DNA from: Deinococcales bacterium
GTDB lineage: Bacteria > Deinococcota > Deinococci > Deinococcales > JAAFIG01
Direction: 5' to 3'
Length of the DNA: 64,000 nucleotides
NCBI GenBank assembly: GCA_013298595.1
Contig: JAAFIG010000002.1
Location: 142,781 to 206,780, forward strand
Below, in pieces: positions 1 through 64,000 of the stretch. How positions within the stretch are numbered: the first letter of the stretch is position 1; every line of letters starts with the position of its first letter. The notes under the pieces are model-generated. The model was not told the DNA's origin. It worked only from the letters and a program-made list of their open reading frames with translations, and made no database searches. The position numbers and the translations under genes were made by a program.

Positions 1-77
1 AGGTTCAAAGCGGTTCGTAAGTGTTTTGGAATTAAAACGTGCCCAAAGGTATCAAGAGTAATGGTTTCACTGTGCAT
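1..77 (-). CDS. AbrB/MazE-type antitoxin, N-terminal fragment (runs off left edge)
   Basis: Reading the minus strand from the ATG at 77 gives 25 complete codons with no stop before the window edge. The peptide contains LDTFGHVLIPKHLR followed by TALN. This matches the SpoVT-AbrB beta-fold signature (L-x-x-x-G-x-h-h-I-P-x-x-h-R) of MazE/VapB/AbrB antitoxins. Proteins of this kind bind DNA as dimers, usually repress their own operon and neutralise a toxin encoded just downstream, which would lie outside the window. The inverted repeat just upstream (79-107) fits as an autoregulatory operator. It could instead be a stand-alone AbrB-like regulator; the rest of the gene is needed to tell. Confidence 0.6.
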   Translation of the reverse strand, partial: MHSETITLDTFGHVLIPKHLRTALN

Positions 78-78
78 A

Positions 79-107
79 ATTGCCAATTAGAATAAAAAAT
101 TGGCAAT
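79..107. promoter_or_regulatory. Inverted repeat upstream of the AbrB-type gene
   Basis: ATTGCCAATT (79-88) and AATTGGCAAT (98-107) are perfect 10-bp arms separated by 9 A/T-rich bases, directly upstream of the antitoxin start at 77. Position and symmetry suggest an operator for that protein. This is inferred from layout only. Confidence 0.5.
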
Positions 108-200
108 AATGCTTTTTAGATTGAGCATCTAATCTGTGTCTTGAATGCTTTACGAACGCTTGCTCGAGACTTAGTAACTTAAAACCTGCACAATAGACCC

Positions 201-956
201 ATGAATTACTTTGCTCATGCCAGTGCGGCTGAACGTTATGCAGCTTTCCGTCCGTATTTTCATCCCAGAGCCGTGAAACTGCTGCTCGAGGCTACAAACC
301 AACAACGTTTCTCGAGGGTGCTGGATGTGGCTTGCGGCACTGGCATGGGAGTCAAAGCGCTGCTTGAGGTTGCAGATTCTGTGACAGGTTGCGATGCCGC
401 TCCTGAAATGCTTGAATTTGCTCAGCGTGACTTGCCACAAGCTGATTTTCTGGAATCTCGAGCCGAAGTACTGCCTTTTGTGGATGCCAGTTTTGATGTA
501 CTAACGACTTTCTTGGCGTTTCATTGGTTTGATGGGGCTAAGTTCTTAACCGAGGCAACTCGAGTACTGCAATCTAATGGTTATTTGATGATTGTGCAAC
601 ACGTTTTTGATTGTTCGCTCGAGGGGGCAGAGTTATTCAGATCAAGTATGGATGATTTCTACGCGGATTATCCACAACCACCACGCAATCCGCTACGGCT
701 CGAGCCTACTGCCAGTACCGATTTTGGATTTCGGATTGTTGCACAGCAAAATTGGTCAGAAACCTTTGCCATGAATGCCGAGCAAGTCGCGCAGTATATC
801 AGTACACAAAGCAATGTGATTGCTAAGGTTGAACAAGGTACTGAACGCTTAGAACAGGTGCTTGAGAAAATTAACGCTCGAGTGCAGCCATTCTTGCAAG
901 GTGGTATGGGGAATTTTGGTTTTACTGGGCAGCTTTGGGTGTTGCAAAAAATTTAA
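201..956 (+). CDS. Class I SAM-dependent methyltransferase (Methyltransf_11-like)
   Basis: A 251-residue soluble protein. Motif I, the SAM-binding glycine loop, is VLDVACGTGMG at residues 40-50. The acidic residue of the next strand is D65 in VTGCDAAPEML, and a motif IV-like FDVLTTFLAFHW follows near residue 100. This is the layout of small-molecule methyltransferases of the UbiE/BioC/Tam type; the substrate cannot be read from sequence. There is no DNA methyltransferase motif (no DPPY/NPPY or PC catalytic loop), so it is not an obvious CTCGAG methylase. The ATG at 201 lacks a good ribosome-binding site; CACAAT at 189-194 lies 6 nt upstream and could be a weak leaderless -10. The gene ends in the shared terminator at 968-992. 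Confidence 0.8.
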   Translation: MNYFAHASAAERYAAFRPYFHPRAVKLLLEATNQQRFSRVLDVACGTGMGVKALLEVADSVTGCDAAPEMLEFAQRDLPQADFLESRAEVLPFVDASFDVLTTFLAFHWFDGAKFLTEATRVLQSNGYLMIVQHVFDCSLEGAELFRSSMDDFYADYPQPPRNPLRLEPTASTDFGFRIVAQQNWSETFAMNAEQVAQYISTQSNVIAKVEQGTERLEQVLEKINARVQPFLQGGMGNFGFTGQLWVLQKI

Positions 957-967
957 TCTCGAGAAAC

Positions 968-992
968 CAAAAACCTCGCCTAGGCGAGGTTT
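968..992. terminator. Bidirectional intrinsic terminator
   Basis: AACCTCGCC and GGCGAGGTT form a 9-bp stem with a 2-base loop, flanked by A-rich and T-rich tracts on opposite sides. It can terminate the methyltransferase mRNA on the plus strand and the tRNA-Asn transcript on the minus strand. Confidence 0.85.
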
Positions 993-997
993 TCTTC

Positions 998-1072
998 TGG
1001 CTCGGGAGGTAGGGATCGAACCTACGACCAATCGGTTAACAGCCGATTGCTCTACCGCTGAGCTACTCCCGA
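998..1072 (-). tRNA. tRNA-Asn (anticodon GTT), CCA encoded
   Basis: On the minus strand the acceptor stem TCGGGAG pairs with CTCCCGA. The D arm is GCTC...GAGC, the anticodon stem ATCGG/CCGAT closes the 7-base loop CTGTTAA giving anticodon GTT, and the T arm is GTAGG-TTCGATC-CCTAC. The discriminator is G (1001) and CCA is encoded at 998-1000. All stems pair, so this is an intact tRNA-Asn with its own promoter upstream and a terminator just downstream. Confidence 0.96.
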
Positions 1073-1092
1073 ACGCGGTTAGTGCGGACGAA

Positions 1093-1121
1093 AATGTATC
1101 ATGGGTTTTCGAGAAACGCAA
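1093..1121 (-). promoter_or_regulatory. Promoter of tRNA-Asn
   Basis: On the minus strand TTGCGT (1121-1116) and TACATT (1098-1093) are separated by exactly 17 bp. Transcription would start near 1086, about 14 nt before the mature tRNA 5' end at 1072. Confidence 0.75.
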
Positions 1122-1151
1122 GCCCCCCTTTTGGTATTATTGGTTTGGGGC

Positions 1152-1180
1152 TTGACGTTGTGCGGTTAAGCGTGTATCTT
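1152..1180 (+). promoter_or_regulatory. Promoter of tRNA-Leu
   Basis: TTGACG (1152-1157), a 17-bp spacer and TATCTT (1175-1180) match a housekeeping-sigma promoter. The predicted start near 1187 gives a leader of about 10 nt before the tRNA. Confidence 0.8.
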
Positions 1181-1196
1181 TTGTTGCCCTGAGCGT

Positions 1197-1283
<87 letters not shown>

Positions 1284-1287
1284 TAGC

Positions 1288-1319
1288 AACCACGATTCTT
1301 GACTCGAGTCGTGGTTTTT
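1288..1319 (+). terminator. Terminator of tRNA-Leu
   Basis: AACCACGA (1288-1295) pairs with TCGTGGTT (1309-1316) around a loop that contains a CTCGAG, followed by a short T run. It is a rho-independent terminator for the tRNA-Leu transcript. Confidence 0.8.
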
Positions 1320-1393
1320 CTTGTATACTTTGTGAGTAACAGGGTTTTGATGATTTTAGCTTGAGGTCGAAAAAGCTGTTTTTTGGGCTTTGG

Positions 1394-1460
1394 TGGGAAA
1401 ACAAAAGCATTATTTGCCTCTCGAGTGGGGTTTGGTGGGGTTGAGTGGTAAAACTGGGGA
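1394..1460 (+). promoter_or_regulatory. dcw promoter region with MraZ-type TGGG operator repeats
   Basis: TGGGG at 1426, TGGGG at 1436, TGGTA at 1446 and TGGGG at 1455 are direct repeats with a 10-bp step (9 for the last). TGGGA also occurs at 1394. MraZ is known to bind TGGGN repeats separated by 5 bp, i.e. a 10-bp period, and to repress its own operon. The array lies upstream of mraZ; the likely -10 is the AT-rich stretch at 1468-1483 (TTATATC), so MraZ bound here would cover the -35 region. The exact transcription start was not identified. Confidence 0.8.
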
Positions 1461-1547
1461 AAGCATGATATTCTCTTATATCAGCGCTTCACTGTTTGCT
1501 GGTCGTGTGTTTTCCTAAGGTGGTCTTAGGAAGCGATTTTGGCACAG

Positions 1548-1562
1548 TGGGAAACGGTGGGA
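1548..1562 (+). promoter_or_regulatory. Second MraZ-box pair overlapping the mraZ ribosome-binding site
   Basis: TGGGA at 1548 and TGGGA at 1558 are exactly 10 bp apart and end two bases before the mraZ ATG (1565), overlapping its GGGAG ribosome-binding sequence. A 6-bp inverted repeat CCTAAG-N5-CTTAGG (1514-1530) lies in the same leader. This may be a second regulatory site; the role is inferred from the repeat spacing. Confidence 0.5.
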
Positions 1563-1564
1563 GA

Positions 1565-2005
1565 ATGCCGTTCGGAGAGTACCCTTACGCAATTGATGAC
1601 AAAGGTCGGGTGGTGATGCCACCAGACTTTCGTAAGTTTGTCGAGGATGGCATGGTGCTGACTCGAGGTTTTGAGGGTTGCGTGTATATCTTTCCGTTGT
1701 CTGAATGGCAACGGATCGAAAGTGCTGTTGATGAATTGCCTTTAAACGATAAAGCTGGTCGTGACTTTATGCGTTTTTTCTATGCTGGGGCGCAAAAAAT
1801 TCGTTTAGATAATCAATCTCGGATTTCGGTTCCTAACACCCTGCGTTCTTACGCAGCGCTCGAGGGCGATGTGGTTGTGACGGGCGCACCTAAGCGCCTC
1901 GAGTTATGGAATATTGATCGTTGGAATGTCATCATTGCCGAAGTGCAAATGCAGCCGCCTAAACAAGAAGAACTGCCTGAAGTCTTACGCAAGTTGGTGG
2001 GCTGA
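1565..2005 (+). CDS. mraZ: Transcriptional regulator MraZ
   Basis: A 146-residue protein with two SpoVT-AbrB half domains: DKGRVVMPPDFR at residues 12-23 and DNQSRISVPNTLR at 82-94. It is the first gene of the division/wall cluster and represses that operon in other bacteria. The N-terminus MPFGEYPY is the form seen in Deinococcus, so the ATG at 1565 is preferred over a TTG at 1496 that would add 23 unrelated residues. Operator repeats lie upstream (1394-1460 and 1548-1562). The stop overlaps the rsmH start by one base (TGATG), implying translational coupling. Confidence 0.96.
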   Translation: MPFGEYPYAIDDKGRVVMPPDFRKFVEDGMVLTRGFEGCVYIFPLSEWQRIESAVDELPLNDKAGRDFMRFFYAGAQKIRLDNQSRISVPNTLRSYAALEGDVVVTGAPKRLELWNIDRWNVIIAEVQMQPPKQEELPEVLRKLVG

Positions 2006-2907
2006 TGGCACGAGTTAAAGGTAAGCGCATTGTTGTGAAAACCGAATCTGATGGTTCGCAACTCAGCCATTTACCTGTGATGCCAAGCGAAGTTCTAGCG
2101 GCACTCGAGCCAAAAGCGGGGGCATTCATTGTCGATGGCACACTTGGTGGTGCAGGGCATACGCGTTTACTGCTCGAGGCGGGTGCTCAGGTGATTGGCA
2201 TAGACCAAGACCCTTTTGCTTTAGCCAGAGCCAAAGAAGCTGGGTTATTGGGTCTTGAGGTGCGTGAGGGTAATTTTCGTGATCTCGAGCTACTTGTACC
2301 TGAACGAGTGGATGGTGTGTTGCTGGATTTAGGTGTTTCGAGTTTCCAATTAGATGATGCCATGCGTGGGTTTTCTTTTCATACTGATGCGCCGCTGGAT
2401 ATGCGAATGTCGCAAAGTGGTGAATCGGCAGCTGATATTGTGAATACCCTAGATTACGAAGATTTAGCCCAAATTATTTATGATTACGGCGAGGAACGTC
2501 ACTCGCGGCGTATTGCCAGAGCAATTGTTGCAGAACGTGAGAAAACGGCTTTCTCGAGCACAGTACAACTGGCAGCGGTGGTGAAAAAAGCGTACCCAGG
2601 TGGTCATGCTCGGGGGATTCATCCTGCACGGCGTACATTTCAGGCTTTACGGATTTACGTCAACGATGAACTTGGCGCACTTGAAGCGGGTTTACGAGGT
2701 GCAAAAACCATTCTCAAAACAGGTGGGCGTTTAGCGGTGATTAGTTTCCACTCACTCGAGGATCGTATTGTCAAGCGTTTTATGCGAAGCGAACTCGAAC
2801 CACTTCATAAAAAACCACTTGAAGCAACAGTTGCAGAACTCGAGATCAATCCGCGTTCGAGAAGTGCTAAGTTGCGTGTGGCAAGTAAAACCGAGGTGAT
2901 CGCATGA
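2005..2907 (+). CDS. rsmH: 16S rRNA C1402 N4-methyltransferase RsmH
   Basis: A 300-residue SAM-dependent enzyme (MraW) that methylates N4 of C1402 in the 16S rRNA decoding centre. Visible landmarks are the SAM loop VDGTLGGAGHT near residue 43, LDLGVSSFQLD near 104, HPARRTFQALRI near 206 and the strongly conserved ISFHSLEDRIVKRF near 246. Length is normal for the family. It is coupled to mraZ by a 1-base overlap and to ftsL by ATGA. The N-terminal 20 residues (KGKRIVVKTE) are a lineage-specific extension. Confidence 0.97.
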   Translation: MARVKGKRIVVKTESDGSQLSHLPVMPSEVLAALEPKAGAFIVDGTLGGAGHTRLLLEAGAQVIGIDQDPFALARAKEAGLLGLEVREGNFRDLELLVPERVDGVLLDLGVSSFQLDDAMRGFSFHTDAPLDMRMSQSGESAADIVNTLDYEDLAQIIYDYGEERHSRRIARAIVAEREKTAFSSTVQLAAVVKKAYPGGHARGIHPARRTFQALRIYVNDELGALEAGLRGAKTILKTGGRLAVISFHSLEDRIVKRFMRSELEPLHKKPLEATVAELEINPRSRSAKLRVASKTEVIA

Positions 2908-3230
2908 GTGAACGTATTCAACGTTTTATGCTTTTTTATGCTGTGATGGTTGTGGTTTTGGTTGGTGTGCGTTTTATGACCAAAGACAGTGCTCAGCAAC
3001 TCGAGGATTTACAAATACAAACAGGTTTATTAGTTGCTGAACGTGCCGAATTACAATTGCAACTGGCTAATCTTGAAAGTCCGAGTCGGGTTCGTAAATG
3101 GGCTTTTGATAACAATATGATTCCGTTTTCAAGTGCCAGTGCTTTACAACTCGAGTTTAAGCCGTTGAAATTGTTAGCACCTATTGCTCCTGTGAAACAA
3201 AAAATTACGGTTGAAACACAGTGGCGTTAA
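2904..3230 (+). CDS. ftsL: FtsL-like cell division protein
   Basis: A 108-residue bitopic membrane protein. A short cytoplasmic tail is followed by one transmembrane helix (about residues 8-25, FMLFYAVMVVVLVGVRF) and a heptad-rich coiled-coil stretch (about 30-62). This is the FtsL/FtsB architecture, and the slot between rsmH and ftsI is where ftsL lies in other genomes. Sequence conservation in this family is low, so the call rests on topology and position. In other bacteria FtsL works with FtsB and FtsQ to activate FtsW/FtsI at the septum. The start overlaps the rsmH stop (ATGA). Confidence 0.8.
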   Translation: MSERIQRFMLFYAVMVVVLVGVRFMTKDSAQQLEDLQIQTGLLVAERAELQLQLANLESPSRVRKWAFDNNMIPFSSASALQLEFKPLKLLAPIAPVKQKITVETQWR

Positions 3231-3276
3231 GTCAGTATCAAGGTATGTAAAATCTGTTGAAAAATTGGAAACCTCT

Positions 3277-4713
3277 ATGACCCAAGTCGAAACTAAACCA
3301 ATCAAAACAACGACAATACCGCTCGAGACAGAGCCTGCGGTTGTTGATATTTTGCCACCAGTTGCAGTGCAACAACCTTGGCGATTTACCTTGGTTGGTC
3401 TTGTTTTAGCTGTGCCGTTGTTGCTTTTATGGCTCGAGTTTGCCAGTTTATCTTTGGGTTTGCCGTTTATTCCAAAAGTTGTTCAAGAAGTCCAACGTGG
3501 ACGAATTCTGATGCGTGACGAAAAAGGTTTTATGACCTTAGCCGAAACAGCAGGTCAAGGGGCTAATCTCGAGCGCCATTATCCTCAGGAGCGTTTAGCC
3601 GCAGGTGTACTGGGTTTTGTTGGTGATGAACAAAAAGGCTTGTATGGTGTGGAACTTTTCCAAAATGAATTCCTGAAAAAAGGCGCAGATTTGGTTTTAA
3701 CGTTAGACCCTAAAATTCAAGCCAGTGCCGAAGCAACCCTCGAGAATGCCATACTTTCTACAGGAGCAGAATCAGGCACAGTGGTGGTGATGGAAGCCAA
3801 GACCAATCGTTTATTGGCAGTGGCAAATGCGCCAGGCTTTGATGCTAGTAATTGGGAAGCTTCAAAAGAAAGTATTTGGAAAAACCGTGCTTTCCGCGAT
3901 ACATTCGATCCTGGTAGCACAATTAAAGGTTTGGTTGCTGCAATGCTGGTTAATGAAGGTATTGCCGATGCCGATTCACCAATTTACGCACCCATGCAAC
4001 GCCAATACCGCAATGCTCCTCCGATCAATGATGCCATTAAGCACCGCCCAGATTTAACCTTAAAAGATGTGCTGAAATACTCGAGCAATGTTGGAATCTC
4101 GAGGTTTGCGGATCGTTTAGGTGCCAGGAAATTACATGATTACTTAGGGAAATTTGGTTTTGGACGCGATGTTTGGGTTAAAGATTCCAGTGTCGAAACA
4201 GGTGTCCTGACCAATTGGCAAGGCTGGCGACCACGTGATTTTGCCACCCATAGTTTCGGACAAGGCTTTACCAGCACAGCTGTGCAACTTGCCACAGCCT
4301 TTAGTGTCTTGGTCAACGATGGGCAGTACATTGCCCCTAAATTATTTGATGGACAAGATATCCCTAAACCAACTCGAGTTATCAGCCCAGAAGCTGCTAA
4401 AGCAACGCGTACCATGCTCGAGTACACAGTCAACGAAGGCGTCAAACGTGCCCAAGTGCCAAATTATTGTGTTGGTGGTAAAACTGGTACATCTGAAACG
4501 TGGGTCAATGGCAAGATATCCTCGAGCCGTTTCCATGCCTTATTTGCTGGATTTTTTCCTGTGGATAATCCAAAAGTGGTGATTGCTGTGCAGTTGTATG
4601 CACCAAAATCGGTCTACCATGGTTCATTGGTGTCTGCGCCTGTTTTTAGACAAATTGTGCTTGAGACAGCCGCACGGTATGGTATTGCACCTTCTCCTTG
4701 TGTGAAACGGTAG
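3277..4713 (+). CDS. ftsI: Class B penicillin-binding protein FtsI (septal transpeptidase)
   Basis: A 478-residue protein with a cytoplasmic tail, one transmembrane helix (about 37-58) and a periplasmic transpeptidase domain. The three active-site motifs are present: STIK (214-217), SSN (269-271) and KTG (402-404). It cross-links septal peptidoglycan together with FtsW. It is shorter than the roughly 550-600 residues of many FtsI proteins because the region before the catalytic domain is small. The ATG at 3277 is preceded by GGAAA; an upstream TTG at 3211 would overlap ftsL. It is followed by a 20-bp palindrome (4758-4777) before murF. Confidence 0.93.
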   Translation: MTQVETKPIKTTTIPLETEPAVVDILPPVAVQQPWRFTLVGLVLAVPLLLLWLEFASLSLGLPFIPKVVQEVQRGRILMRDEKGFMTLAETAGQGANLERHYPQERLAAGVLGFVGDEQKGLYGVELFQNEFLKKGADLVLTLDPKIQASAEATLENAILSTGAESGTVVVMEAKTNRLLAVANAPGFDASNWEASKESIWKNRAFRDTFDPGSTIKGLVAAMLVNEGIADADSPIYAPMQRQYRNAPPINDAIKHRPDLTLKDVLKYSSNVGISRFADRLGARKLHDYLGKFGFGRDVWVKDSSVETGVLTNWQGWRPRDFATHSFGQGFTSTAVQLATAFSVLVNDGQYIAPKLFDGQDIPKPTRVISPEAAKATRTMLEYTVNEGVKRAQVPNYCVGGKTGTSETWVNGKISSSRFHALFAGFFPVDNPKVVIAVQLYAPKSVYHGSLVSAPVFRQIVLETAARYGIAPSPCVKR

Positions 4714-4757
4714 AATTGTTCGATGAAGTCTTTATTGACAGTATTAACAACATATGG

Positions 4758-4777
4758 GGGCTTGCTCGAGCAAGCCC
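4758..4777. repeat. Perfect 20-bp palindrome between ftsI and murF
   Basis: GGGCTTGCTC and its exact reverse complement meet at a central CTCGAG. No T run follows, so it is not a standard terminator. In RNA it would fold into a strong hairpin about 24 nt before the murF start, so it could act in processing or attenuation. TTGACA at 4735-4740 lies nearby but has no matching -10. Confidence 0.6.
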
Positions 4778-4801
4778 TGATTCGTGTCTACCGAGGTTCT
4801 G

Positions 4802-6073
4802 ATGATTGATCCTCGAGTGTGGGCAGCTGAACTTGGTGCGATCGTCAGTGCCGATGCTGGTGTGGCAAAACGCATTACTTTTATGACTGCTGAATGTAAT
4901 GAAGAAACAGCCTTTGCGGCTCTGCAAGGTGCAACGCGGCATGGCAATGATTTTATTGAAGCAGCACTCGAGGCAGGAGCACCATTTATTCTGACCAATC
5001 TCGATGTGCCTCGAGCGGTTAAAGTGGCGGATAGCACGGTGGCATTGCGTCGCTGGGCAAGATTACACCGCGATGCTACGCAAGCTGAGTTAATTGGTAT
5101 TACAGGTTCGGCAGGCAAAACCACTGCTAAAAGCTTGGTCTCGAGTGCTTTGGCTGTGCCGACCACACCAGGAAATTTAAACACCCTCAATTACTTGGCA
5201 TGTTATTTACTTTCAAATGTGACCACTGGCAGTACCCATGTGATCGAAATGGGCATTGACCGCATTGGCGAAATGGATGAATTAATGGCATTGGTTGCAC
5301 CAAGTATTGGTGTGATTACGGCTGTAGGAGCAGCTCATCTCGAGTTTTTTGGAACTGTCAAAACAGTTGCTTATGAAAAAGGCAGAATGCTTCAAGCGCC
5401 TTCTGGATTGGTAGCAGGTAGCACAGCGTATCGTTATCCCAACACACCAAGTTATGGTTTCCTCGAGACCTGTACTTTCGCGGCTACAGCCCTTGAAGTT
5501 GATGCTGAAAGTGTTTCGTTTACCTACCATAATCAGCGTATTACTTTGGCAACACCAAGTGTGCAAATTGCTGAAAGTGCAGTGCTGGCACTTGCTCTTG
5601 CTGAAAAATTTGCGATTCCACTCGAGGTAGCTAAAACCAGACTTGAGCAGAGCCAAATCCCAAGTGGTAGGCTCCGTATTGAACGTGGCAATATCACCCT
5701 GATAGACGATGCGTACAATGCCAATCCGCTTTCAGTAGCTGCTAGTCTCGAGACACTAGCGCGTTTCTCTGGGCGTAAAGTGGCTATTCTTGGGCATATG
5801 CGCGAACTTGGTACTTATAGCCGTGAGTACCATCACGAAGTTGGCATTATCGCTGGTAAACAAGCTGATCTTGTCATTGCCATCGGCGAACATAGTGATG
5901 CTTTGGTACAGGCAGCCCTCGAGAACGGAACAGAAGCTATTGCTTACGAAACTACCGAGATTGCTAAGACACAGGTTTACAAACACATCAAAAATGGCGA
6001 TAACATCCTCGTCAAAGGCTCGAGATTTGTTGCTCTCGAGCAGTTGGTGGAGGTGTTACGTGAAAAACTTTAA
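4802..6073 (+). CDS. murF: UDP-MurNAc-tripeptide--D-Ala-D-Ala ligase MurF
   Basis: A 423-residue cytoplasmic Mur ligase that adds D-Ala-D-Ala to complete the UDP-MurNAc-pentapeptide. The ATP-binding loop TGSAGKTT is at residues 101-108, and the later motifs LIDDAYNANPLS and AILGHMRELG are recognisable. GAGG at 4793-4796 is 5 nt before the ATG at 4802, so this start is preferred to a GTG at 4784. No murE or ddl is found in this cluster, as in Deinococcus. The gene is the last before a lipoprotein gene inserted in the cluster. Confidence 0.95.
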   Translation: MIDPRVWAAELGAIVSADAGVAKRITFMTAECNEETAFAALQGATRHGNDFIEAALEAGAPFILTNLDVPRAVKVADSTVALRRWARLHRDATQAELIGITGSAGKTTAKSLVSSALAVPTTPGNLNTLNYLACYLLSNVTTGSTHVIEMGIDRIGEMDELMALVAPSIGVITAVGAAHLEFFGTVKTVAYEKGRMLQAPSGLVAGSTAYRYPNTPSYGFLETCTFAATALEVDAESVSFTYHNQRITLATPSVQIAESAVLALALAEKFAIPLEVAKTRLEQSQIPSGRLRIERGNITLIDDAYNANPLSVAASLETLARFSGRKVAILGHMRELGTYSREYHHEVGIIAGKQADLVIAIGEHSDALVQAALENGTEAIAYETTEIAKTQVYKHIKNGDNILVKGSRFVALEQLVEVLREKL

Positions 6074-17671: not shown

Positions 17672-19048
17672 TTACGCACGACGTTCTTTGACAGCGTGGG
17701 CGCTATAGCCAAATTGTGGCAAGCTACTCTGGGCATTCTCGAGAATGACTCGAGCTAATTCACCAAGGTTTTTGCCACCACTGCGGACATCCATTTTGAG
17801 TTTTTCACGTAAATTTGTCAGACTGATATCGTCAAGCATCAATTCTGTGCCGTAACGCAAAGTGCTTGGGCTAACAATCAGTAAATCTGCTTCGGCTGGC
17901 GTAATATTCTCGAGGAAACAACGCCCAGTCAGTAAACCAGCCACGGTAGTAACCGTACCAAAGGTTTTATTCTCGAGTGCTCGAACTTCGATATGTAAAC
18001 CCCGCACTGCCCGTAAAGGCTCGAGGGCAAGATCTAAAATTGGGGCGAACAATTTACCTGTTCCAAGAATCACTCGAGTGCCAGGTACGGCTTTTGGCAA
18101 CGGTGGCAATTCGCCGCTGAGAAAATCACGTACCATACCCACACCATTCTCGAGCATTGGGTAACCTTCGTAGGCTTCTTCTGGTGGTAGCGGTTCGCCA
18201 GCCAGAATATAAAATTCATCGGATGGAAAAATAAATCGCGTGCCACGTTCCTCGAGCAATTTTTTCTGCCACTTATGAGCGATACGCAGCACATCCTTGG
18301 CTTCTGGAGCAGTGTAAGGACGTAACTCGGGCAGATTGCGCCGATGGTCGGTTAAACCAAGTGGTACACAGGCAACCGATAAGACATTTGGTAAACTACT
18401 CAGGTATTCAAGCGATTCCTCGAGATACTGCCCATCGTTACGGCTTGGCAACAAAACAAGTTGCGTGTACAAATCAATTGGCTCAAGACGTTTTAAGGTG
18501 TCTTGAATTTTGGTACTTTCAGGGTCTTTGACTTTTAAGCGCCACCATTTCATCATATCTGCCCGCAAAGCCTGATCGGTACTGTGCACCGAGACATACA
18601 AAGGCGAGAGATTCTCCGAGATAATTCGGTCAAAATCGGCTTCGGATAAATTGGTTAGCGTTACAAACGAACCATACAAAAACGACAAACGATAATCATC
18701 ATCCATCACATATAAACTCTTACGAAATCCCTTAGGCATCTGGTGTACATAACAAAACTCGCATTTATTGGCACACAATTTAATACCATCAAACAGCACT
18801 TCACTAAACTCGAGACCAGGATCTTCCCAAGAGACACGAAATTCAAAAGTACTACTATCAACGCGTTGCATCTCGAGGGTCACATCACCCGCTTCGAGTT
18901 CACGCCGGTACGCCAGAATATCGGTAATGGCATTGCCATTGACGCGCAGCAAGGCATCACCGGCTTGTACACCCGCTTGGGCAGCCGCAGAATCAGGTTC
19001 AACCCTCGAGACAAAAGCAGGATGAACAGGGGAGAGCAAAGACATCAT
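17672..19048 (-). CDS. PDZ-DUF512 radical-SAM-like FeS protein
   Basis: A 458-residue protein of the DUF512 family. Residues 1-70 form a PDZ-like domain (SRVEPDSAAAQAGVQAGDALLRVNG). A cysteine cluster LCANKCEFCYV (C92, C96, C99) resembles a radical-SAM or NifB-type FeS site, and the DUF512 domain fills the C-terminal half. Its reaction is not established. The ATG at 19048 is supported by a leaderless promoter: TACACT at 19060-19055 ends 6 nt before it. Next gene upstream on the same strand is the MaoC-like protein, 48 nt away. Confidence 0.85.
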   Translation of the reverse strand: MMSLLSPVHPAFVSRVEPDSAAAQAGVQAGDALLRVNGNAITDILAYRRELEAGDVTLEMQRVDSSTFEFRVSWEDPGLEFSEVLFDGIKLCANKCEFCYVHQMPKGFRKSLYVMDDDYRLSFLYGSFVTLTNLSEADFDRIISENLSPLYVSVHSTDQALRADMMKWWRLKVKDPESTKIQDTLKRLEPIDLYTQLVLLPSRNDGQYLEESLEYLSSLPNVLSVACVPLGLTDHRRNLPELRPYTAPEAKDVLRIAHKWQKKLLEERGTRFIFPSDEFYILAGEPLPPEEAYEGYPMLENGVGMVRDFLSGELPPLPKAVPGTRVILGTGKLFAPILDLALEPLRAVRGLHIEVRALENKTFGTVTTVAGLLTGRCFLENITPAEADLLIVSPSTLRYGTELMLDDISLTNLREKLKMDVRSGGKNLGELARVILENAQSSLPQFGYSAHAVKERRA

Positions 19049-19054
19049 GCCTCG

Positions 19055-19060
19055 AGTGTA
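19055..19060 (-). promoter_or_regulatory. Leaderless -10 box of the DUF512 gene
   Basis: TACACT on the minus strand followed by CGAGGC and then the ATG at 19048. The last bases of the box and the spacer together make a CTCGAG. Confidence 0.65.
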
Positions 19061-19096
19061 GCGTACTCGGCGCTGAGAAACGAGGGACGACCCGCA

Positions 19097-19504: not shown

Positions 19505-19510
19505 GACTCG

Positions 19511-19520
19511 AGTGTAAACT
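19511..19520. promoter_or_regulatory. Overlapping divergent leaderless -10 boxes
   Basis: Minus-strand TACACT (19516-19511) serves the MaoC gene at 19504, and plus-strand TAAACT (19515-19520) serves the aldo/keto reductase at 19527. The two boxes share two bases and each ends 6 nt before its start codon. Only 22 bp separate the two start codons. Confidence 0.7.
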
Positions 19521-19526
19521 ATTCGT

Positions 19527-20988: not shown

Positions 20989-21077
20989 AATTTGGATAGC
21001 TCGAAATGTGAAATCGAGATGGTACAGTACTCGAGAAATGGTTAAACGTATCATTCAATCCTGTACGTATCTCGTTT

Positions 21078-55908: not shown

Positions 55909-56715
55909 ATGCAACTCGAGACTTACTTCAAACGCATTGGCTACACAGGGACTCGAGAACCAACTTTGGCTGTGTTGAACGCCGTACAAGAAGCCCATCT
56001 GAAAAGTATTCCTTACGAGAATCTGGATATTCATCTCGGGCGAACACTACCAATTAGTGAAACTCGAGCTTATGAAAAAATTGTGCTCGAGCAACGCGGC
56101 GGTTGGTGTTACGAAATGAATTCGTTGTTTGCTTGGGCTTTACGCGAAATGGGTTTTGTTGTGCAGTACCACTCGAGTGCCGTATTGCGTCCAAATGGTT
56201 TAACCCCAGATGGCGATCATTTGATTTTACTGGTACAACTCGAGGAGGGTACTTTCCTTGCTGATGTTGGTTTTGGTGATGGTTCAATTCCTGTTTTACC
56301 TTTGCAGCAAGGCACGTACCAATCGGGATTTCTCGAGTATGGCATGAGTTACACTGCGCCTTATTGGACAATGCACAACCCAAAACAGAGCAACACCGCA
56401 GGTTTTGCTTTTACCCTCGAGCCAAGGCAACTCAAGTTTTTTCAGGAGCGCTGCACCGATTTACAAACCAATGCCGAAAGCGGATTTGTCCGTACTACCG
56501 TTTGTCAGCGGATTACTCGAGAAGCGCTTTATACCTTGCGTGGCGCAGTGCTAGGCGAATTAACAGCAAGTGGCAAAACTGAACGTACTCTCAAGAATAT
56601 GGCAGATTATCAAAAAGTTTTACTCGAGAAATTCAACCTCGAGTTACCAGAAGCACCGATGCTCTGGGAGAAAATCTGGGCACGGCATCTCGAGTGGGTA
56701 AATAGACTAGGTTAA
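55909..56715 (+). CDS. Arylamine N-acetyltransferase
   Basis: A 268-residue NAT. The catalytic cysteine lies in RGGWCYEMNSLFAWAL (near residue 68), the histidine in GDHLILLVQLEEG (near 107) and the aspartate in FLADVGFGDG (near 122), completing the Cys-His-Asp triad. It transfers acetyl groups from acetyl-CoA to arylamines or hydrazines. The start at 55909 has a weak upstream CAAAAT. It converges on the SIR2-domain gene with a 9-base overlap. Confidence 0.94.
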   Translation: MQLETYFKRIGYTGTREPTLAVLNAVQEAHLKSIPYENLDIHLGRTLPISETRAYEKIVLEQRGGWCYEMNSLFAWALREMGFVVQYHSSAVLRPNGLTPDGDHLILLVQLEEGTFLADVGFGDGSIPVLPLQQGTYQSGFLEYGMSYTAPYWTMHNPKQSNTAGFAFTLEPRQLKFFQERCTDLQTNAESGFVRTTVCQRITREALYTLRGAVLGELTASGKTERTLKNMADYQKVLLEKFNLELPEAPMLWEKIWARHLEWVNRLG

Positions 56716-59700
56716 ACCAATCTTAACCCAAGGTTTCCAAACTTCTGGTAACACATCTTTTTTCGCTTCGGTCTGCCATAACTCGAGAGCATCTGGGATT
56801 GGCTTATTTTTATGTTGAAACTCCCTCCATAACTTAGCCGCTAGTTTTGATGCTCTTGCCCGTAAGATGGGACGGTCTGTCCATGAAACTCCTATAAATG
56901 TATCCAAATCATCACCAGCTTTAATCTGCGAATCTAATAAGGCACGGTGTAAAATGCTCAAAATAATTGGCATTACTGAATCAGGTAGGTTTGCTGCAAA
57001 AGTATCTTCACTGACCGCTTCCCACATGGTCTCTGTCGCAGCATGATTTGTAAATGGTAGATTGTACAAACACAGTTCAATTAAGCGTTCTGGGCAAGTC
57101 CGTGTATTACTCTTTTTTGTATAGTTTAACCAGCGCATAATTCCAAAACCTGTACTTGTACTAAGTTTGTAATCAGAACTTGTTAAGTCTTTAGTAAATT
57201 GCTTTTCGAGTTCTTCCTTAGAAATCTGGTTTGTTAAAAGTTTAGTAGGTGCGATTGCTGCTAAATTTATACCTTCATTTTCGATAGTCTCAAACCAATT
57301 TGCAATTTTCAACTTATTGGTTTTTGAAAGAGGAAGTAATTTAGGTATTAAAAAATCGACTGTTACCATGATTGCTCTGATTATTTGATCTTTCTTACTC
57401 CATTGACTATCATCTTTGACAAAAGTAACCCCATCATCTTTCCACCAACTAAGAATATTGTCGAGTAAAGCTGTAAGTTCTTTTTGACTAAATTCTATTG
57501 AGCTGTCTGGGTGGAGCAGGGTAGTTAACTCTTTGAAAAAATAACTATTTTCATCTGGACCTAAAGCGTAATTATTGTCTGGATTTCTGATTTTTGGTAC
57601 TGCCGAATGAATATAGTGTTGTTTGATTGTTTGTAAGACGTTGTTTTGTGGCGGATGAGGTAGTTTTAGGTAAGCTGTTTTGTAAAAATTTAAAAAAACT
57701 GGTAAATGACCCTGTTTTGTATCATTCCAAATTCGTTCTCCAAATAACTCTAGTTCCAACCTATTCAGAGCATGTTTTTCGGATAAAAAAGATAGTCGCA
57801 AGATGGCTCTACGTTGAGTTTCTCTATTCTTGGATTCAGCTAGGAAAAGTAATTTTTTTACTATACTTCTATCAACTCCTAAATCGATATTAAAAGATTC
57901 TTGATAAAGAAAAGCAGCACTAAAAGGCTCTGGGTATTCTGTTGCTATTTGCCCCTGAGCAAAGTTTTCTTCCCCAGGAATGGGAAGCTCAAGTAAGTAT
58001 GGTATTTTGGGAACAATATCCTTTATTTGTAATGTGGCACAAGTCCTTTCAAAAGCATTTCGCAAAGGGGTTTGTAAAAACATCCAAGTCTGCACTCGTG
58101 GCAACTTGAAAACTTGAATAATTAAGTCTAAGAAATGAAGACGCTTTTCCAAAGACATTCGTAAAGTAAGTCGAGAAAGAATCTCTGTGCCATATTCAAA
58201 AATTACGTCGTCATAGTGTCTTCCTGGTTCTATTTCAAATTGATTGACATTTTTTTCGGTGCATTCAATTGCTTTTTTTAAAGCAATGAGCAATAGTTCA
58301 ATAATTTCTGAAACATTACTTTCGGGTAATGCCAACACTCCTATTCTAGTGAAATGTTCTTCAATAAAGTTTTTATCACCACACCGTATTGCATGAAATG
58401 TAGCGATGATGGGAGATTTTCGCCATAGTTGAACTATCGATTTTGTAACAGCATCTTTATGGATTGAAACATTCCCAATTTTGTAGGGTGTAGCACCTTG
58501 TACAGTCATTTCAAGAAATGCAACTGCTTGTATAAAATCAAACTCGGTGTTGTTTCTTGTTGAATGGGAACGTGTATAGACTTGAGGATCAAAACTATTT
58601 CGACCACTACTCTGCTTTAAGCTAGGTGGAATAATTCGGAATGGTATGTCTCCTTCAGTATTCGTAATTTCGGGATTAGGATTGCATAAATCCCGCTCGA
58701 GCTGCTCAAAGCGTTCTTTGGTTTCAATGATAGATGTATCTTTATTTATGAATTTTTGATATTTACCTAAATTTTCAAGTAGATTGAGCGTCCAACCTTC
58801 TTCTGAAAGCCGACCATAGTCGGTAAAATTTCGATTGATACGATTACGGATCTCAGTCAGCGCTTCTGATGCGACTGAAATTGCTTCTTCTATTTTTCCG
58901 AGTTGAGCAAGATAGGCGGCACGACGAGTCTCAAAAAATGGATTATTAAAATCTGGTTTCCAAGATTTTAATATTATGCTTGCAGATTGATGATCCAAGC
59001 AAGAAATAGCAAACTCTAGCTCTTCAAGTTTGATTTTACTATTCCAAGCATTATTATTTAGAGTAACGGATTTTAACGTACTTAGGGTGCTATTGAATAG
59101 ATTTTGATCAAGATTTATCCGTGCAGTCCGTAAGATATTAAATCCAAGATCACGCCAAGCTAGGCTATGGCTATTTTCTATATTCCGTTTCCAAGTTTTA
59201 ATAAAATCTGATAACACTGAGTTAGGTAGCCCAGCAAGCAACATCTCAAACCACCAACAAATTTCGCTTAGAATTTCAAGTTCGAGAGATTTATTTGTAT
59301 TGTGGATTAGCATTTTTGGGTTATTCCATAGCCAGGAAAGCCAAGTATTCCAATCGCGTGATAGTAGTCTAATACCCTGATGCAACCACTTCCGCTGCTT
59401 GGATGGGCAAATTACCCATCCAGCATAACGTTTTCGCATTTCTTTCCAAAGTAATAAACGTTCTCGAAGGGGTGAGCTATCATCATTTGAAATATCTATG
59501 TGATAATCAAAGAGCTTACCAAAATCTAACGGAGTATAACCATCTGGTTCTGAATTGGTTGAAATTTGTTTTTCTTGAAAAGGATTGTATACAGCTGGAA
59601 AATCTTTTGGATTTAATCCTTTACGCTTTTGTAATTCTTCAGTAAACCATTCTAAAGGTGCATGATATTTTTCCAATTCTGAAAGAGGTCGGTCAAACTT

Positions 59701-60486
59701 TACTGTACCTAAGTCAAGAACATTGATGCCTTGAGTCTCGAAATACTGACGTTGGGTTGAATCTATTTTTGTTGTTGTTACAAGTAAGATATGTGGCGCA
59801 TAGTCTCCAAGTTCATCACGAACCCAGCCAGCCCAAGCCTTGAAATTTGGATCATCCCCTGAAAATCCAAGCAAAACGAAGGTGTTTTCCATCAAGGATT
59901 GTTGAACCAAATTGATAAAAGGCGCAAATTTCTTCGGGTATGTTCGGAAATCTTCAGTAGTGATGATAAATGGGCGCTGTGATGGAAAACTGCCATGAAG
60001 TTTAACAATACGTGGTGCGCGGCTCGAAGTAATATCTGGTATATTTGCAACTAAGCTATAACTACGGTCAGTAATAAGTTTGGCAGCATCTTCTAACAGC
60101 GTATCGTAATTTGTTGTAAAAATATCAGTCCAAGGAAGCCGTATCAAATCAGTATGTAACGAACTTGGACTATACGAATCGTTGTCTACAACTTCAAGAA
60201 TAGCTGCTGCGAGTGCATCTTTTCCAAATGTCATTTCAAATTGCCCTGCAATATCTTTGCCATCTCGAGTATTGATGGTTTTCTCAGGTAAATTTAATCG
60301 CTCGCCTAAAAATTTCGTAATTTCCCACCATGTAGGAGCGGGGCGTTGGTCAGTACGATGAAGGACAGCATTTCTACTAAAGCCTGCTCCAATTAAAACA
60401 GAGGCACGTTTTTCCTTGAATAAGCGTCTTGCTAACCAATCAATTTGCTGCTCAACAATAGGTGGAATCTCGGTGGCTTTTAACAT
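56707..60486 (-). CDS. Giant SIR2-domain protein, putative anti-phage NADase (DSR-like)
   Basis: A 1259-residue protein. An N-terminal SIR2-like domain shows GAGFSRNA (33-40, NAD loop), TTNYDTLLED (N126, D128), KLHGS (H164) and LLGFSGDDPNF (206-215). The remaining 900 residues are helical with no recognised domain. This is the plan of defence-associated sirtuins, which sense phage proteins with the large C-terminal part and degrade NAD+. The region is AT-rich and has only 3 CTCGAG sites in 3.8 kb, so it was probably acquired recently. Yet its start carries a native-like TAGACT-6-ATG. No second defence gene is adjacent. Confidence 0.82.
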   Translation of the reverse strand: MLKATEIPPIVEQQIDWLARRLFKEKRASVLIGAGFSRNAVLHRTDQRPAPTWWEITKFLGERLNLPEKTINTRDGKDIAGQFEMTFGKDALAAAILEVVDNDSYSPSSLHTDLIRLPWTDIFTTNYDTLLEDAAKLITDRSYSLVANIPDITSSRAPRIVKLHGSFPSQRPFIITTEDFRTYPKKFAPFINLVQQSLMENTFVLLGFSGDDPNFKAWAGWVRDELGDYAPHILLVTTTKIDSTQRQYFETQGINVLDLGTVKFDRPLSELEKYHAPLEWFTEELQKRKGLNPKDFPAVYNPFQEKQISTNSEPDGYTPLDFGKLFDYHIDISNDDSSPLRERLLLWKEMRKRYAGWVICPSKQRKWLHQGIRLLSRDWNTWLSWLWNNPKMLIHNTNKSLELEILSEICWWFEMLLAGLPNSVLSDFIKTWKRNIENSHSLAWRDLGFNILRTARINLDQNLFNSTLSTLKSVTLNNNAWNSKIKLEELEFAISCLDHQSASIILKSWKPDFNNPFFETRRAAYLAQLGKIEEAISVASEALTEIRNRINRNFTDYGRLSEEGWTLNLLENLGKYQKFINKDTSIIETKERFEQLERDLCNPNPEITNTEGDIPFRIIPPSLKQSSGRNSFDPQVYTRSHSTRNNTEFDFIQAVAFLEMTVQGATPYKIGNVSIHKDAVTKSIVQLWRKSPIIATFHAIRCGDKNFIEEHFTRIGVLALPESNVSEIIELLLIALKKAIECTEKNVNQFEIEPGRHYDDVIFEYGTEILSRLTLRMSLEKRLHFLDLIIQVFKLPRVQTWMFLQTPLRNAFERTCATLQIKDIVPKIPYLLELPIPGEENFAQGQIATEYPEPFSAAFLYQESFNIDLGVDRSIVKKLLFLAESKNRETQRRAILRLSFLSEKHALNRLELELFGERIWNDTKQGHLPVFLNFYKTAYLKLPHPPQNNVLQTIKQHYIHSAVPKIRNPDNNYALGPDENSYFFKELTTLLHPDSSIEFSQKELTALLDNILSWWKDDGVTFVKDDSQWSKKDQIIRAIMVTVDFLIPKLLPLSKTNKLKIANWFETIENEGINLAAIAPTKLLTNQISKEELEKQFTKDLTSSDYKLSTSTGFGIMRWLNYTKKSNTRTCPERLIELCLYNLPFTNHAATETMWEAVSEDTFAANLPDSVMPIILSILHRALLDSQIKAGDDLDTFIGVSWTDRPILRARASKLAAKLWREFQHKNKPIPDALELWQTEAKKDVLPEVWKPWVKIGLT

Positions 60487-60492
60487 TATCTC

Positions 60493-60498: not shown

Positions 60499-60553
60499 AT
60501 ATATTGAATAAGTATCTGTGTGGATTTCTCTGTATTTAAACTCGAATTGTTAG

Positions 60554-61060: not shown

Positions 61061-61085
61061 GGTTGTTTGATTCCTAAAGATTATG

Positions 61086-61114
61086 CTCTTGACAGAACAA
61101 GAGTTTTGTATAAA
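61086..61114 (+). promoter_or_regulatory. Promoter and candidate HxlR operator for the VOC gene
   Basis: TTGACA (61089-61094) and TATAAA (61109-61114) suggest a promoter with a short 14-bp spacer (or TAAAAA at 61111 with 16). CTCTTG-ACAGAA-CAAGAG (61086-61103) has perfect 6-bp arms overlapping the -35, as expected for a repressor site. Confidence 0.6.
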
Positions 61115-61213
61115 AATAGTACCAAGAACTTGGAAAGATGTCTGCAAGCTAAGCAACAAAGCGGCATCGCTAAACCTTGTTTACCATAAAAATCGTACCA
61201 AAAGGAGAACACT

Positions 61214-61609
61214 ATGTCCACAAACAATCGTCTCGAGAGTCTAGGATTTAAGCCCACCGTGGTTGCCAGCACCAGTGTCAGCAACCTCGAGCAGAGCATC
61301 AAATGGTATTCGGAAAAACTTGGTTTAGAACTGATTTATAAAGTAGACGAAATTGCTTGGTGCGAAATGACCACACCAGTTCCGGGCGTAACCATCGGTT
61401 TATCGCAAGTCGAAAACCCACAAGTTCACGGCACCGTCATGACATGGGAAGTCAACGATGTCGCCCACACTCGAGCGATTCTCGAGCAAGCAGGGGTGCA
61501 ATTTGCGGGTGAAACCAGTACCATTCCAAACTTGGTAACGCTGGCAAGTTTCTACGACCCAGATGGCAATACTTACATGCTCGCACAAAACCTGATGCAG
61601 CCATCATAA
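61214..61609 (+). CDS. VOC/glyoxalase-family protein
   Basis: A 131-residue vicinal-oxygen-chelate protein. The first half carries PTVVASTSVSNLEQSIKWYSEKLGLELIYK, the second NDVAHTRAILEQAGVQFAG and FYDPDGNTYMLAQNLM with the conserved DPDGN turn. It may detoxify or bind a small molecule; its regulator is probably the divergent double-HxlR protein. AGGAG precedes the ATG at 61214. It overlaps the end of the convergent AAA regulator gene by 6 bases. Confidence 0.85.
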   Translation: MSTNNRLESLGFKPTVVASTSVSNLEQSIKWYSEKLGLELIYKVDEIAWCEMTTPVPGVTIGLSQVENPQVHGTVMTWEVNDVAHTRAILEQAGVQFAGETSTIPNLVTLASFYDPDGNTYMLAQNLMQPS

Positions 61610-64000
61610 GTCAGTCTCGAGCCATTTTTGGCGTAACACCCACGTGTCTGGAATCTCGAGTTTCCGTTTTTGGCACAATGCTAAATTTACCTCGAGCGGT
61701 TCTCCAACTTGCACAAATTCGGCTAATCTCGAGATAATGAAATCAGCTTTTTTGTCTGCCCCGCTGTGTCTAAGCGCTTGTACCTCAAGCCAATGCCGCA
61801 CTTTTGGCGCATGAATACCTCGCCAATTGTGGGTGCGTTCTCGAATCTCGAGTGCCTTTAAGGCATGTTGTGCGGCGGTTTCCCAGTTGCCAAGTTTGGC
61901 GTTGGTAGCACATAAAAAAGACTCGAGGTAATCGTTATAAGTATCACCAATAATCTCGTACTCTTTAGGCTCGAGTGCTTGAATACGTTGTTGGGCTTCG
62001 AGAATCACATCTCGAGCCAAGACAAATTCTGCTTGTTCAAAATAGACGAACCCCAAGGCAAAACAAAATTCGGCTGCCATACGTGGCAATGCCGTCACTC
62101 GGCAAGCATAAGTTTGCAAACATAAAGTGCTGGCATGTTCGGTTTCGCCACGCTCGAGCAAAGCATAAGCGAGGTACACGGCTGCCATACCAGTAAAAGC
62201 AGGGTTATCATCTATGGCTTGTTTCATCGAAAAAGCTTCGCGGGTATTCTGGATGGCGCTATCAAGTTGCCCAAGATTGGTTTGGCAAAACCCCAAATTC
62301 TCGAGACGGTAGGCTCTAAAATCGTTCGGACAAATACTGATGGAACTGGCTAAAATATCGTCCCAGTTTTGAGCAGCTTCGTGCCAGTACCCCCACGCTT
62401 GACGGGTACTGGCGATGGTTGCCAGTACCGAAGTGTAAGTGTCTAAACTCAGTACTTTTGCTTCGGGTAGCAAGGCTTCAAATTCAGTAAAAAACGCAGC
62501 ATGATCTTTTCGAGGGCGTTGCTCGATACCAATCCAGAGTAATTTTAATTCAAACAATGCTCGTTGATCGCCTGTGGTTTTGAACAGCTCTTGGGCTTGT
62601 AATTGCAAGGCTCGAGCCTGATCTGGTTTTTGCCAACCAAGCGTATCGGCTAAAAACATCAGCCCATGTGCCTCGAGATTTACATCGGGAATGGCTCTGG
62701 CGAGGGCAATGGTTTCGTTGGCGAGGGTTGAGTTGGCTTCAAACATATTGAGTGTTACATGGAGTTGTGCGGTATTGCCGAATAATTCGGCAAGTTCAAC
62801 TGAGCCTAAACCCAAACCATGAGGTACACCATCAGGGCGCTCAACCAAAATACGCCGAGCTGTCTCGAGGTGGGTTAAAGCATCACGCCACGCATAATTC
62901 AAACTGGCAGCATCGGCAGCTTCAACCGAAAAACGTACTGCTTCAAGCCAAGCCCGTGCACCAATCGCATGGGTTGCCCGTTGCGCTGCACTACCATGAA
63001 CTCGAGTCAGTGCCAATGATTGCAAAGCCTGTAAACGTGGCGCACTGAGGCGTTGCAAAGCAGTTTCTCGCAATTTATCATGCGAAAAAGTGTATTTGGT
63101 GGCTTGTAAATCCGTGGCAGGTAACTCGAGCAACACCCGAGCACGCAAACATTCTTCGAGCGCCAGTAACAATTCGTTTTCGGGGATTTGAGCCACTCGA
63201 GCCGCATCTGAAAAAACAAAACCTTGTCCGAGTACCGCGCCAACCTCGAGCAAAATCCGAGCGGTATGGCTGAGCCGAGCAAAGCGAGCTTCGATCACAG
63301 TGCGAACCCCAGGAGCGGTTTGTGGCTGATCTGCAAAATGCACTTTCCAACCATCGCGCTCGGCTAAAAGCACACCATTCTCGGCAAGGCTGCGCAGTGT
63401 TTCTGCAATATACAGTGGTTGCCCACTGGTTTCGGAAAACAACCAATCCAGCAGTGCGGCTGGTGGCACACCCATATCCTCGAGTAAACGCAGGGTTTCG
63501 TCTTTAGAAAAAGTGCCAAGCGCCAAAGGTTCAACAGTGACATCTCGAGCCAGATTATTTAACCAGTTTTCGATTTGCTCCAGCGCTTCGCTACGAACTG
63601 TCGAAACCAATAAAATTGGGGTGCGATCAATTGCGGCGCGTCGCAAAACAAACAACAGCATCTCGAGCGAAGCTGCATCTGCCCATTGTGCATCATCCAG
63701 AAACCAAATCAGATGCCCAAGTTTTTGCGATAATTTAATGACCGCCTCAAACACTCTCGAGCGACCCAATGCCTCATCGGACACAGGGGCTGGTAAATTT
63801 GGTACCTCGAGTAATTCTGGCAGTAAACGCGCTAATTCAGCTAACCAAACAGGGGAGAGTAACCCCTCGAGATTTGGCACCCGACGCAACGCATCAGTAA
63901 TGCACTGATACGCCAAAGCACCACCTTCAAAAGCCCGAGCCGACAAAATTGTAGCCCCACGAGCACTCGCCCAAGCCAGAAATTCCTGAGCCAAACGAGT
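61604..64000 (-). CDS. AAA/TPR signalling regulator, N-terminus outside the window
   Basis: The frame stays open to the last base (peptide TRLAQEFLAWASARG...), so about 798 residues are seen and the gene begins beyond the edge. KTRLAQEF would directly follow a Walker A (GxxGxGK) upstream; Walker B is HLIWFLDDAQWAD. Winged-helix-like and TPR repeats fill the rest (for example LLEVGAVLGQGF, GNTAQLHVTLNMF). It resembles COG3899-type regulators that have an N-terminal BTAD/SARP or kinase domain. An internal TTG at 63994 is not the true start. CTCGAG is abundant. Confidence 0.85.
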   Translation of the reverse strand, partial: TRLAQEFLAWASARGATILSARAFEGGALAYQCITDALRRVPNLEGLLSPVWLAELARLLPELLEVPNLPAPVSDEALGRSRVFEAVIKLSQKLGHLIWFLDDAQWADAASLEMLLFVLRRAAIDRTPILLVSTVRSEALEQIENWLNNLARDVTVEPLALGTFSKDETLRLLEDMGVPPAALLDWLFSETSGQPLYIAETLRSLAENGVLLAERDGWKVHFADQPQTAPGVRTVIEARFARLSHTARILLEVGAVLGQGFVFSDAARVAQIPENELLLALEECLRARVLLELPATDLQATKYTFSHDKLRETALQRLSAPRLQALQSLALTRVHGSAAQRATHAIGARAWLEAVRFSVEAADAASLNYAWRDALTHLETARRILVERPDGVPHGLGLGSVELAELFGNTAQLHVTLNMFEANSTLANETIALARAIPDVNLEAHGLMFLADTLGWQKPDQARALQLQAQELFKTTGDQRALFELKLLWIGIEQRPRKDHAAFFTEFEALLPEAKVLSLDTYTSVLATIASTRQAWGYWHEAAQNWDDILASSISICPNDFRAYRLENLGFCQTNLGQLDSAIQNTREAFSMKQAIDDNPAFTGMAAVYLAYALLERGETEHASTLCLQTYACRVTALPRMAAEFCFALGFVYFEQAEFVLARDVILEAQQRIQALEPKEYEIIGDTYNDYLESFLCATNAKLGNWETAAQHALKALEIRERTHNWRGIHAPKVRHWLEVQALRHSGADKKADFIISRLAEFVQVGEPLEVNLALCQKRKLEIPDTWVLRQKWLETDL

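What the first reader, a model, noticed from the sequence alone, without database searches (positions are those of the whole stretch)
1..64000. CTCGAG is a highly iterated palindrome of this genome, comparable to cyanobacterial HIP1
Seen: 34 copies in 1-5000 and 22 in 19001-21000, against about 1.2 and 0.5 expected; a rough extrapolation is several hundred in the window. It falls in all three codon phases (Leu-Glu, X-Arg, Ser-Ser/Arg), in non-coding gaps, in terminator stems and at promoters, so a protein-level cause is unlikely. Known: HIP1 (GCGATCGC) in cyanobacteria is the classic case of such a motif. I know of no description of CTCGAG in this role in Deinococcota. Possible causes are a DNA-repair or recombination signal, a modification site or mutational bias. 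No methylase candidate for it is in the window.
Basis: partly seen in the sequence, partly recalled or inferred. Interest (0 to 1): 0.92.

Follow-up and report, generated by a model that had tools for sequence, protein, structure and literature searches.

The report
CTCGAG repeated 27,000 times per genome
In an uncultured family of Deinococcus-Thermus-group bacteria the six-letter DNA palindrome CTCGAG occurs about every 170 bases, roughly 30 times more often than chance, in genes and between genes alike, so strongly that it has changed the amino-acid make-up of the proteins, and no known reason for it was found.

Summary
Confirmed, and larger than claimed. The window has 399 CTCGAG (12.7 expected from base composition); the genome has 27,159 in 4.58 Mb. 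All four family members held have 26,600-28,200. No other palindrome is enriched comparably; most are avoided. Enrichment occurs in all codon phases and equally in intergenic DNA. Leu-Glu pairs, coded CTCGAG in 65-71% of cases, are 2.3x over-represented, so a DNA-level force has altered proteins.

The trait grades through the phylum (26-32x, 6-11x, about 1x).

New: sites repel each other below about 50 bp (0.23-0.87 of expected pair density), beyond which use is flat. Other palindromes, inverted hexamers and HIP1 in sampled cyanobacterial loci show no such exclusion. This argues against hairpins and against functions that saturate over kilobases. It suggests independent units with a protein-sized exclusion zone.

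No DNA methyltransferase from five Pfam families is shared by all rich genomes, and XhoI endonuclease accompanies roughly halved density. A conserved MTase, as reported for HIPs, was therefore not found, though specificity cannot be read from sequence.

Best reading: a HIP-class motif, new in sequence and phylum, selected per site by an unidentified CTCGAG-recognising protein. Mechanism unproven (0.4); no earlier report found in the papers searched.

The parts
1..64000 (.). 399 copies of the palindrome CTCGAG spread over the whole window; first sites at 163, 285, 311, 457, 559, last at 63866
   Evidence: 12.7 expected from composition; counts in 2-kb bins near Poisson, variance/mean 1.17
1..5000 (.).
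19001..21000 (.).
56707..60486 (-). Dsr2-like defence gene, GC 0.37, poor in the motif: 3 sites against 21.5 expected (56782, 58696, 60264); reads as recently acquired DNA
   Evidence: NCBIfam Dsr2 match E 1.5e-184, below the curated cut-off; site count

Best explanation
CTCGAG is a genome-wide DNA motif of the highly-iterated-palindrome class, favoured site by site. A chromosome-wide DNA-binding protein (architectural, repair or self-marking) recognises CTCGAG, each occupied site gives a small independent benefit, and two sites closer than about 20-50 bp cannot both be used. Selection has therefore added the motif wherever coding allows, in every frame and between genes, and has raised Leu-Glu frequency in proteins. 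Shown: abundance, all-phase and intergenic spread, proteome shift, short-range exclusion, no long-range saturation, clade-wide distribution, no MTase of five Pfam families shared by all rich genomes. Inferred: that selection rather than biased repair drives it, and that a bound protein sets the exclusion zone. The protein is not identified.
For: Whole-genome count; all phases and intergenic DNA; Leu-Glu coded CTCGAG 571 of 808 times against 12.7 expected; Leu-Glu dipeptide 2.0-2.6x in rich genomes, 1.06 in G004; pair density 0.23 at 6-10 bp rising to 1.0 beyond 60 bp, with no deficit for other palindromes or inverted hexamers; use of Leu-Glu flat at 0.73-0.77 from 60 to 400 bp in site-rich surroundings; deficit below 20 bp repeated in G001, G002, G003 and g11; density about 6/kb in family members of sampled GC 0.45-0.60; 53 of 62 conserved Leu-Glu pairs keep CTCGAG although conserved Leu codons match only 26%.
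Against: No candidate protein identified. A mutational or repair bias blocked by a bound neighbour would give the same exclusion. The exclusion is not seen in the moderately enriched genomes G008 and G006. Positions turn over: phase-1 sites shared in only 9 of 47 cases.
Confidence: 0.4

Rival explanations
1. HIP ratchet: CTCGAG is methylated, and methylation-directed mismatch repair preserves mutations that create the site (Elhai's model for HIP1), so sites accumulate without needing a function.
For: Every cyanobacterial HIP had a plausible MTase (PMC4390886). G000 carries several MTases of unknown specificity. A C5 MTase is shared by G000, G001 and G012.
Against: No MTase of the five families is common to all rich genomes. 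Homologues of the C5 enzyme elsewhere lie in CTCGAG-poor DNA. The model predicts saturation at about 1 kb; use here is flat from 60 to 400 bp.
Confidence: 0.25
2. Context-free mutational or repair bias towards CTCGAG, without function or methylation.
For: Affects every sequence class alike, including intergenic DNA, and changes amino acids.
Against: Short-range exclusion is not predicted by a context-free bias. Transition one-offs are in excess, not depleted as efficient conversion of near-matches would give.
Confidence: 0.15
3. DNA-uptake or recombination drive: competent cells preferentially take up or recombine CTCGAG-bearing DNA, as with DUS/USS.
For: Uptake sequences accumulate by molecular drive and are reported to be evenly spaced (PMC1939737); foreign DNA such as the Dsr2-like gene is poor in sites.
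Against: Drive through fragments of kilobase size should make sites redundant over hundreds of bases; the effect ends near 60 bp. A palindromic 6-mer is unlike known uptake sequences (own knowledge).
Confidence: 0.12
4. Restriction-modification: CTCGAG is the protected site of a XhoI-type system.
For: The genome avoids most other palindromes, as under restriction pressure.
Against: XhoI endonuclease (PF04555) is absent from the rich genomes and accompanies about half the density in genus g10. Known R-M sites are usually avoided, not enriched (own knowledge).
Confidence: 0.05
5. Protein or codon cause: Leu-Glu pairs with preferred codons.
For: Phase 0 is the commonest phase; codon preference adds to phase 0 in high-GC relatives.
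Against: CTC and GAG are minor codons outside Leu-Glu (CTC 460 of 5308 Leu; GAG 415 of 2292 Glu). Phases 1 and 2 and intergenic DNA are strongly affected too.
Confidence: 0.01

Closest known systems
HIP1 (GCGATCGC) of cyanobacteria
   Same: Short palindrome, massively over-represented genome-wide, coding and intergenic, clade-wide with losses
   Different: Other motif and phylum; about 5,900/Mb against 500-2500/Mb (PMC4390886); no shared MTase found here; sites exclude each other at short range, which sampled HIP1 loci do not show
Alternate HIPs of single cyanobacteria (GGCGCC, rCCGGy, GCsGC; PMC4390886)
   Same: Hexamer-scale palindromes replacing HIP1 as the dominant motif
   Different: Those are reported as sporadic in single genomes and paired with a plausible MTase; CTCGAG is held by a whole family and part of its sister family
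DNA uptake sequences (DUS/USS) of Neisseria and Haemophilus
   Same: Abundant, even spacing reported, foreign genes poor (comparison partly from own knowledge)
   Different: Those are longer and not palindromic; here exclusion ends near 60 bp and density is far higher
XhoI/PaeR7I restriction-modification (CTCGAG)
   Same: Same recognition sequence
   Different: Endonuclease not found in the rich genomes; where present in this phylum, density is lower

Membership tests
Highly iterated palindrome (HIP) class | One palindrome far more over-represented than all others, genome-wide | tested here: met
Highly iterated palindrome (HIP) class | Present in coding DNA in all phases and in intergenic DNA | tested here: met
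Highly iterated palindrome (HIP) class | A DNA methyltransferase able to modify the motif is present (Elhai 2015) | tested here: inconclusive
   Five Pfam families searched; none shared by all rich genomes; specificities unknown
Highly iterated palindrome (HIP) class | Motif itself methylated in vivo | not testable with these tools
   Needs nanopore, PacBio or bisulfite data
HIP1 itself | Sequence GCGATCGC in cyanobacteria | tested here: not met
   Motif is CTCGAG in Deinococcota; CGATCG is depleted in sampled f1 relatives
XhoI restriction-modification | XhoI-family endonuclease (PF04555) in the genome | tested here: not met
   Absent from G000-G003, G012, G016 and G008
DNA uptake sequence | Sequence-selective uptake in competent cells | not testable with these tools
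   Needs a transformation assay

The most novel reading that the evidence does not exclude
A sequence-specific chromosome-coating protein of Deinococcota recognises CTCGAG at some 27,000 sites per genome with a footprint of a few tens of base pairs; the demand for sites is strong enough to have more than doubled Leu-Glu frequency in proteins, and it works without a conserved methyltransferase.
Probability: 0.28. Interest if true: 0.93.

Novelty: new variant of a known kind. Interest (0 to 1): 0.85.

Why it matters
HIP1 has lacked an accepted function since its description in 1995, and models for it centre on methylation. A second, denser and apparently methyltransferase-uncoupled case in an unrelated phylum, present in weaker form in genomes that look like Meiothermus (7-11x), makes the question testable outside cyanobacteria. 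The exclusion zone and the flat long-range behaviour count against kilobase-range models and point to a footprint-sized local actor. Site density may also flag recently acquired genes such as the Dsr2-like gene in this window.

Tried and rejected
Codon or protein cause: rejected (all phases, intergenic, minor codons). XhoI restriction-modification: rejected. C5 MTase L051 as driver: weakened, since its relatives elsewhere lie in CTCGAG-poor DNA. Gamma M.XhoI-like MTase as driver: 8 of 101 genomes match; the g13 carriers are no richer than congeners. Hairpin avoidance or direct-repeat deletion as the cause of spacing: rejected by same-palindrome and inverted-hexamer controls. 5mC deamination signature: not seen, since transition one-offs are similar at positions 1, 2 and 3. 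VSP-like repair: not supported, since CTTGAG is in excess, not depleted. Helical or longer periodicity of spacings: only the 3-bp codon period. Viruses: a scan for dense sites found contigs with about 8x excess and few or no GAGCTC, hosts unknown; one (G101) was a poly-serine artefact. Xu et al. 2018 on HIP1 selection is not held. Literature searches found no report of CTCGAG in this role, in open-licence papers only.

Full report
OBSERVATION. The window holds 399 CTCGAG against 12.7 expected from composition and 27.7 from an order-2 Markov model; the next palindromic hexamer is about 2x. The window lies in a 4.58-Mb, 68-contig assembly with 27,159 CTCGAG, one per 169 bp, and 15 GAGCTC. In 984 kb of it, O/E against a model built with the motif masked is 72.6.

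NOT A PROTEIN EFFECT. In 184 kb, phases 0/1/2 hold 571/228/159 sites against 64/27/9 after synonymous shuffling, and intergenic DNA has 5.73/kb against 5.81/kb in coding DNA. Leu-Glu is written CTCGAG 571 of 808 times; Leu and Glu codon use elsewhere predicts 12.7. Over 984 kb the figure is 65% of 4109 pairs. The DNA-level force has changed proteins: Leu-Glu is 2.34x over-represented (Glu-Leu 1.00), 2.0-2.6x in the other rich genomes, and 1.06 in G004, a sister-family genome without the excess. Gene calls here are longest non-overlapping ORFs, which is adequate for bulk statistics but not for single genes.

DISTRIBUTION. All four genomes of the family carry 26,600-28,200 copies (about 6/kb) although sampled GC runs from 0.45 to 0.60. 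In the sister family f2, genus g11 has 6.2-7.7/kb, g8 3.6/kb and g4 0.3/kb. Elsewhere in the phylum enrichment is moderate (6-11x in most sampled genomes of g6, g13, g29, g23; several others about 4-9x), with excess outside phase 0 in most, and near absent in g7 (Thermus-like, where TCGA itself is avoided), G041 and G052. Genome names are hidden, so genus guesses are inference; the phylum search returned 111 genomes, all of one order.

OTHER PALINDROMES. The genome avoids most of them: pooled O/E 0.50; TTCGAA 8 against 783, CTTAAG 12 against 386, GAGCTC 6 against 176, both strands. CTCGAG stands out against general palindrome avoidance.

SPACING. Pairs of CTCGAG occur at 0.23, 0.42, 0.47, 0.71, 0.74 and 0.87 of the far-field density at 6-10, 10-15, 15-20, 20-30, 30-40 and 40-60 bp, then about 1.0. 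Same-motif pairs of the other 63 palindromes (0.8-1.45) and inverted pairs of ten common hexamers (1.0-1.1) show no deficit, so neither hairpin avoidance nor repeat deletion explains it. Use of Leu-Glu as CTCGAG rises from 0.22 when another site is 6-10 bp away to 0.77 at 120-200 bp and stays 0.73 at 200-400 bp in site-rich surroundings; phase-1 and phase-2 opportunities repeat the curve. The 6-20 bp deficit recurs in G001, G002, G003 and g11, not in G008 or G006; HIP1 in 429 kb of cyanobacterial loci shows no clear deficit. Each site thus behaves as an independent unit with a footprint-sized exclusion zone. A function needing one site per kilobase would have produced a longer-range fall-off.

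DECAY AND CONSERVATION. One-off neighbours reached by transitions are in 2.0-2.5x excess at positions 1, 2 and 3 alike; transversion neighbours are 0.5-1.3x. This looks like ordinary mutational decay of a maintained motif, not methyl-cytosine hotspots or efficient conversion of near-matches. In orthologous segments at about 72% protein identity, conserved Leu-Glu pairs keep CTCGAG 53 of 62 times while conserved Leu codons match 26%; phase-1 sites are shared in 9 of 47 cases. So density is kept while many positions turn over. The Dsr2-like defence gene (56707-60486) has 3 sites against 21.5 expected, consistent with slow accumulation after transfer.

METHYLTRANSFERASES. Elhai (PMC4390886) found a plausible MTase with every cyanobacterial HIP. 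Five Pfam MTase families were searched in 12-13 genomes and hits compared. None is common to all rich genomes. The best candidate, C5 enzyme L051, is shared by G000, G001 (74%) and G012 (59%) but not G002 or G003; its relatives at 54-66% identity in other phyla lie in DNA where CTCGAG O/E is 0.21. XhoI endonuclease occurs in 4 of 101 genomes, not in the rich ones; three congeners carrying it have about half the density of three without. Two MTase types sit beside XhoI genes: a beta-class one close to a Thermus enzyme with a solved structure (2zie; the Thermus origin is my own knowledge) and a gamma one that occurs patchily. Neither has a close full-length homologue in f1. A CTCGAG MTase differing from genome to genome remains possible, because specificity cannot be read from sequence and assemblies are 91-94% complete.

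MECHANISM. I favour per-site selection through a CTCGAG-recognising DNA-binding protein (0.4): it explains the exclusion zone, the flat long-range behaviour, the similar density at different GC and the proteome shift. A methylation ratchet (0.25) has precedent but lacks a shared enzyme and predicts kilobase-scale saturation. Context-free bias (0.15) does not predict distance dependence, though biased repair blocked by a bound neighbour would. Uptake drive (0.12) predicts fragment-scale saturation. Restriction-modification (0.05) and codon use (0.01) are disfavoured by the data. The remainder is for causes not thought of.

NOVELTY. It works like, and on abundance belongs to, the highly iterated palindromes, but the motif and phylum appear new, it is denser than most reported HIPs (500-2500/Mb; PMC4390886), it has measurable spacing behaviour, and the methyltransferase criterion is unproven. 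No earlier report was found in the open-licence papers searched; subscription journals were not searched.

Noticed in passing
window 56707-60486 (-): Dsr2-like anti-phage sirtuin gene, GC 0.37, almost free of CTCGAG; motif poverty marks it as recent foreign DNA.
   Followed up: partly
G000 and relatives, 984 kb sampled: Extreme avoidance of most other palindromes (TTCGAA 8 against 783, CTTAAG 12 against 386, GAGCTC 6 against 176), and GGCC almost absent from G000, G001 and G003 but not from G002.
   Followed up: partly
G000, 984 kb sampled: The octamer CCTCGAGG is much rarer (60) than other flank combinations of CTCGAG (255-501), so one outer context is disfavoured.
   Followed up: no
G018, G042, G048 (L404-L406); G009 (L407): XhoI-family endonucleases beside a beta-class MTase in genus g10, and a XhoI gene broken by stops beside a gamma MTase in G009; carriers in g10 have about half the CTCGAG density of congeners.
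   Followed up: partly
IMG/VR contigs behind L331 (110 kb), L296 (73 kb), L302, L241: Viral contigs with about 8x CTCGAG and 0-1 GAGCTC, enriched in all phases; hosts unknown, possibly hosts with the same motif.
   Followed up: partly
proteins of CTCGAG-rich genomes: Ser-Ser is also over-represented (1.4-1.8x against 1.19 in G004), perhaps from phase-2 sites.
   Followed up: no
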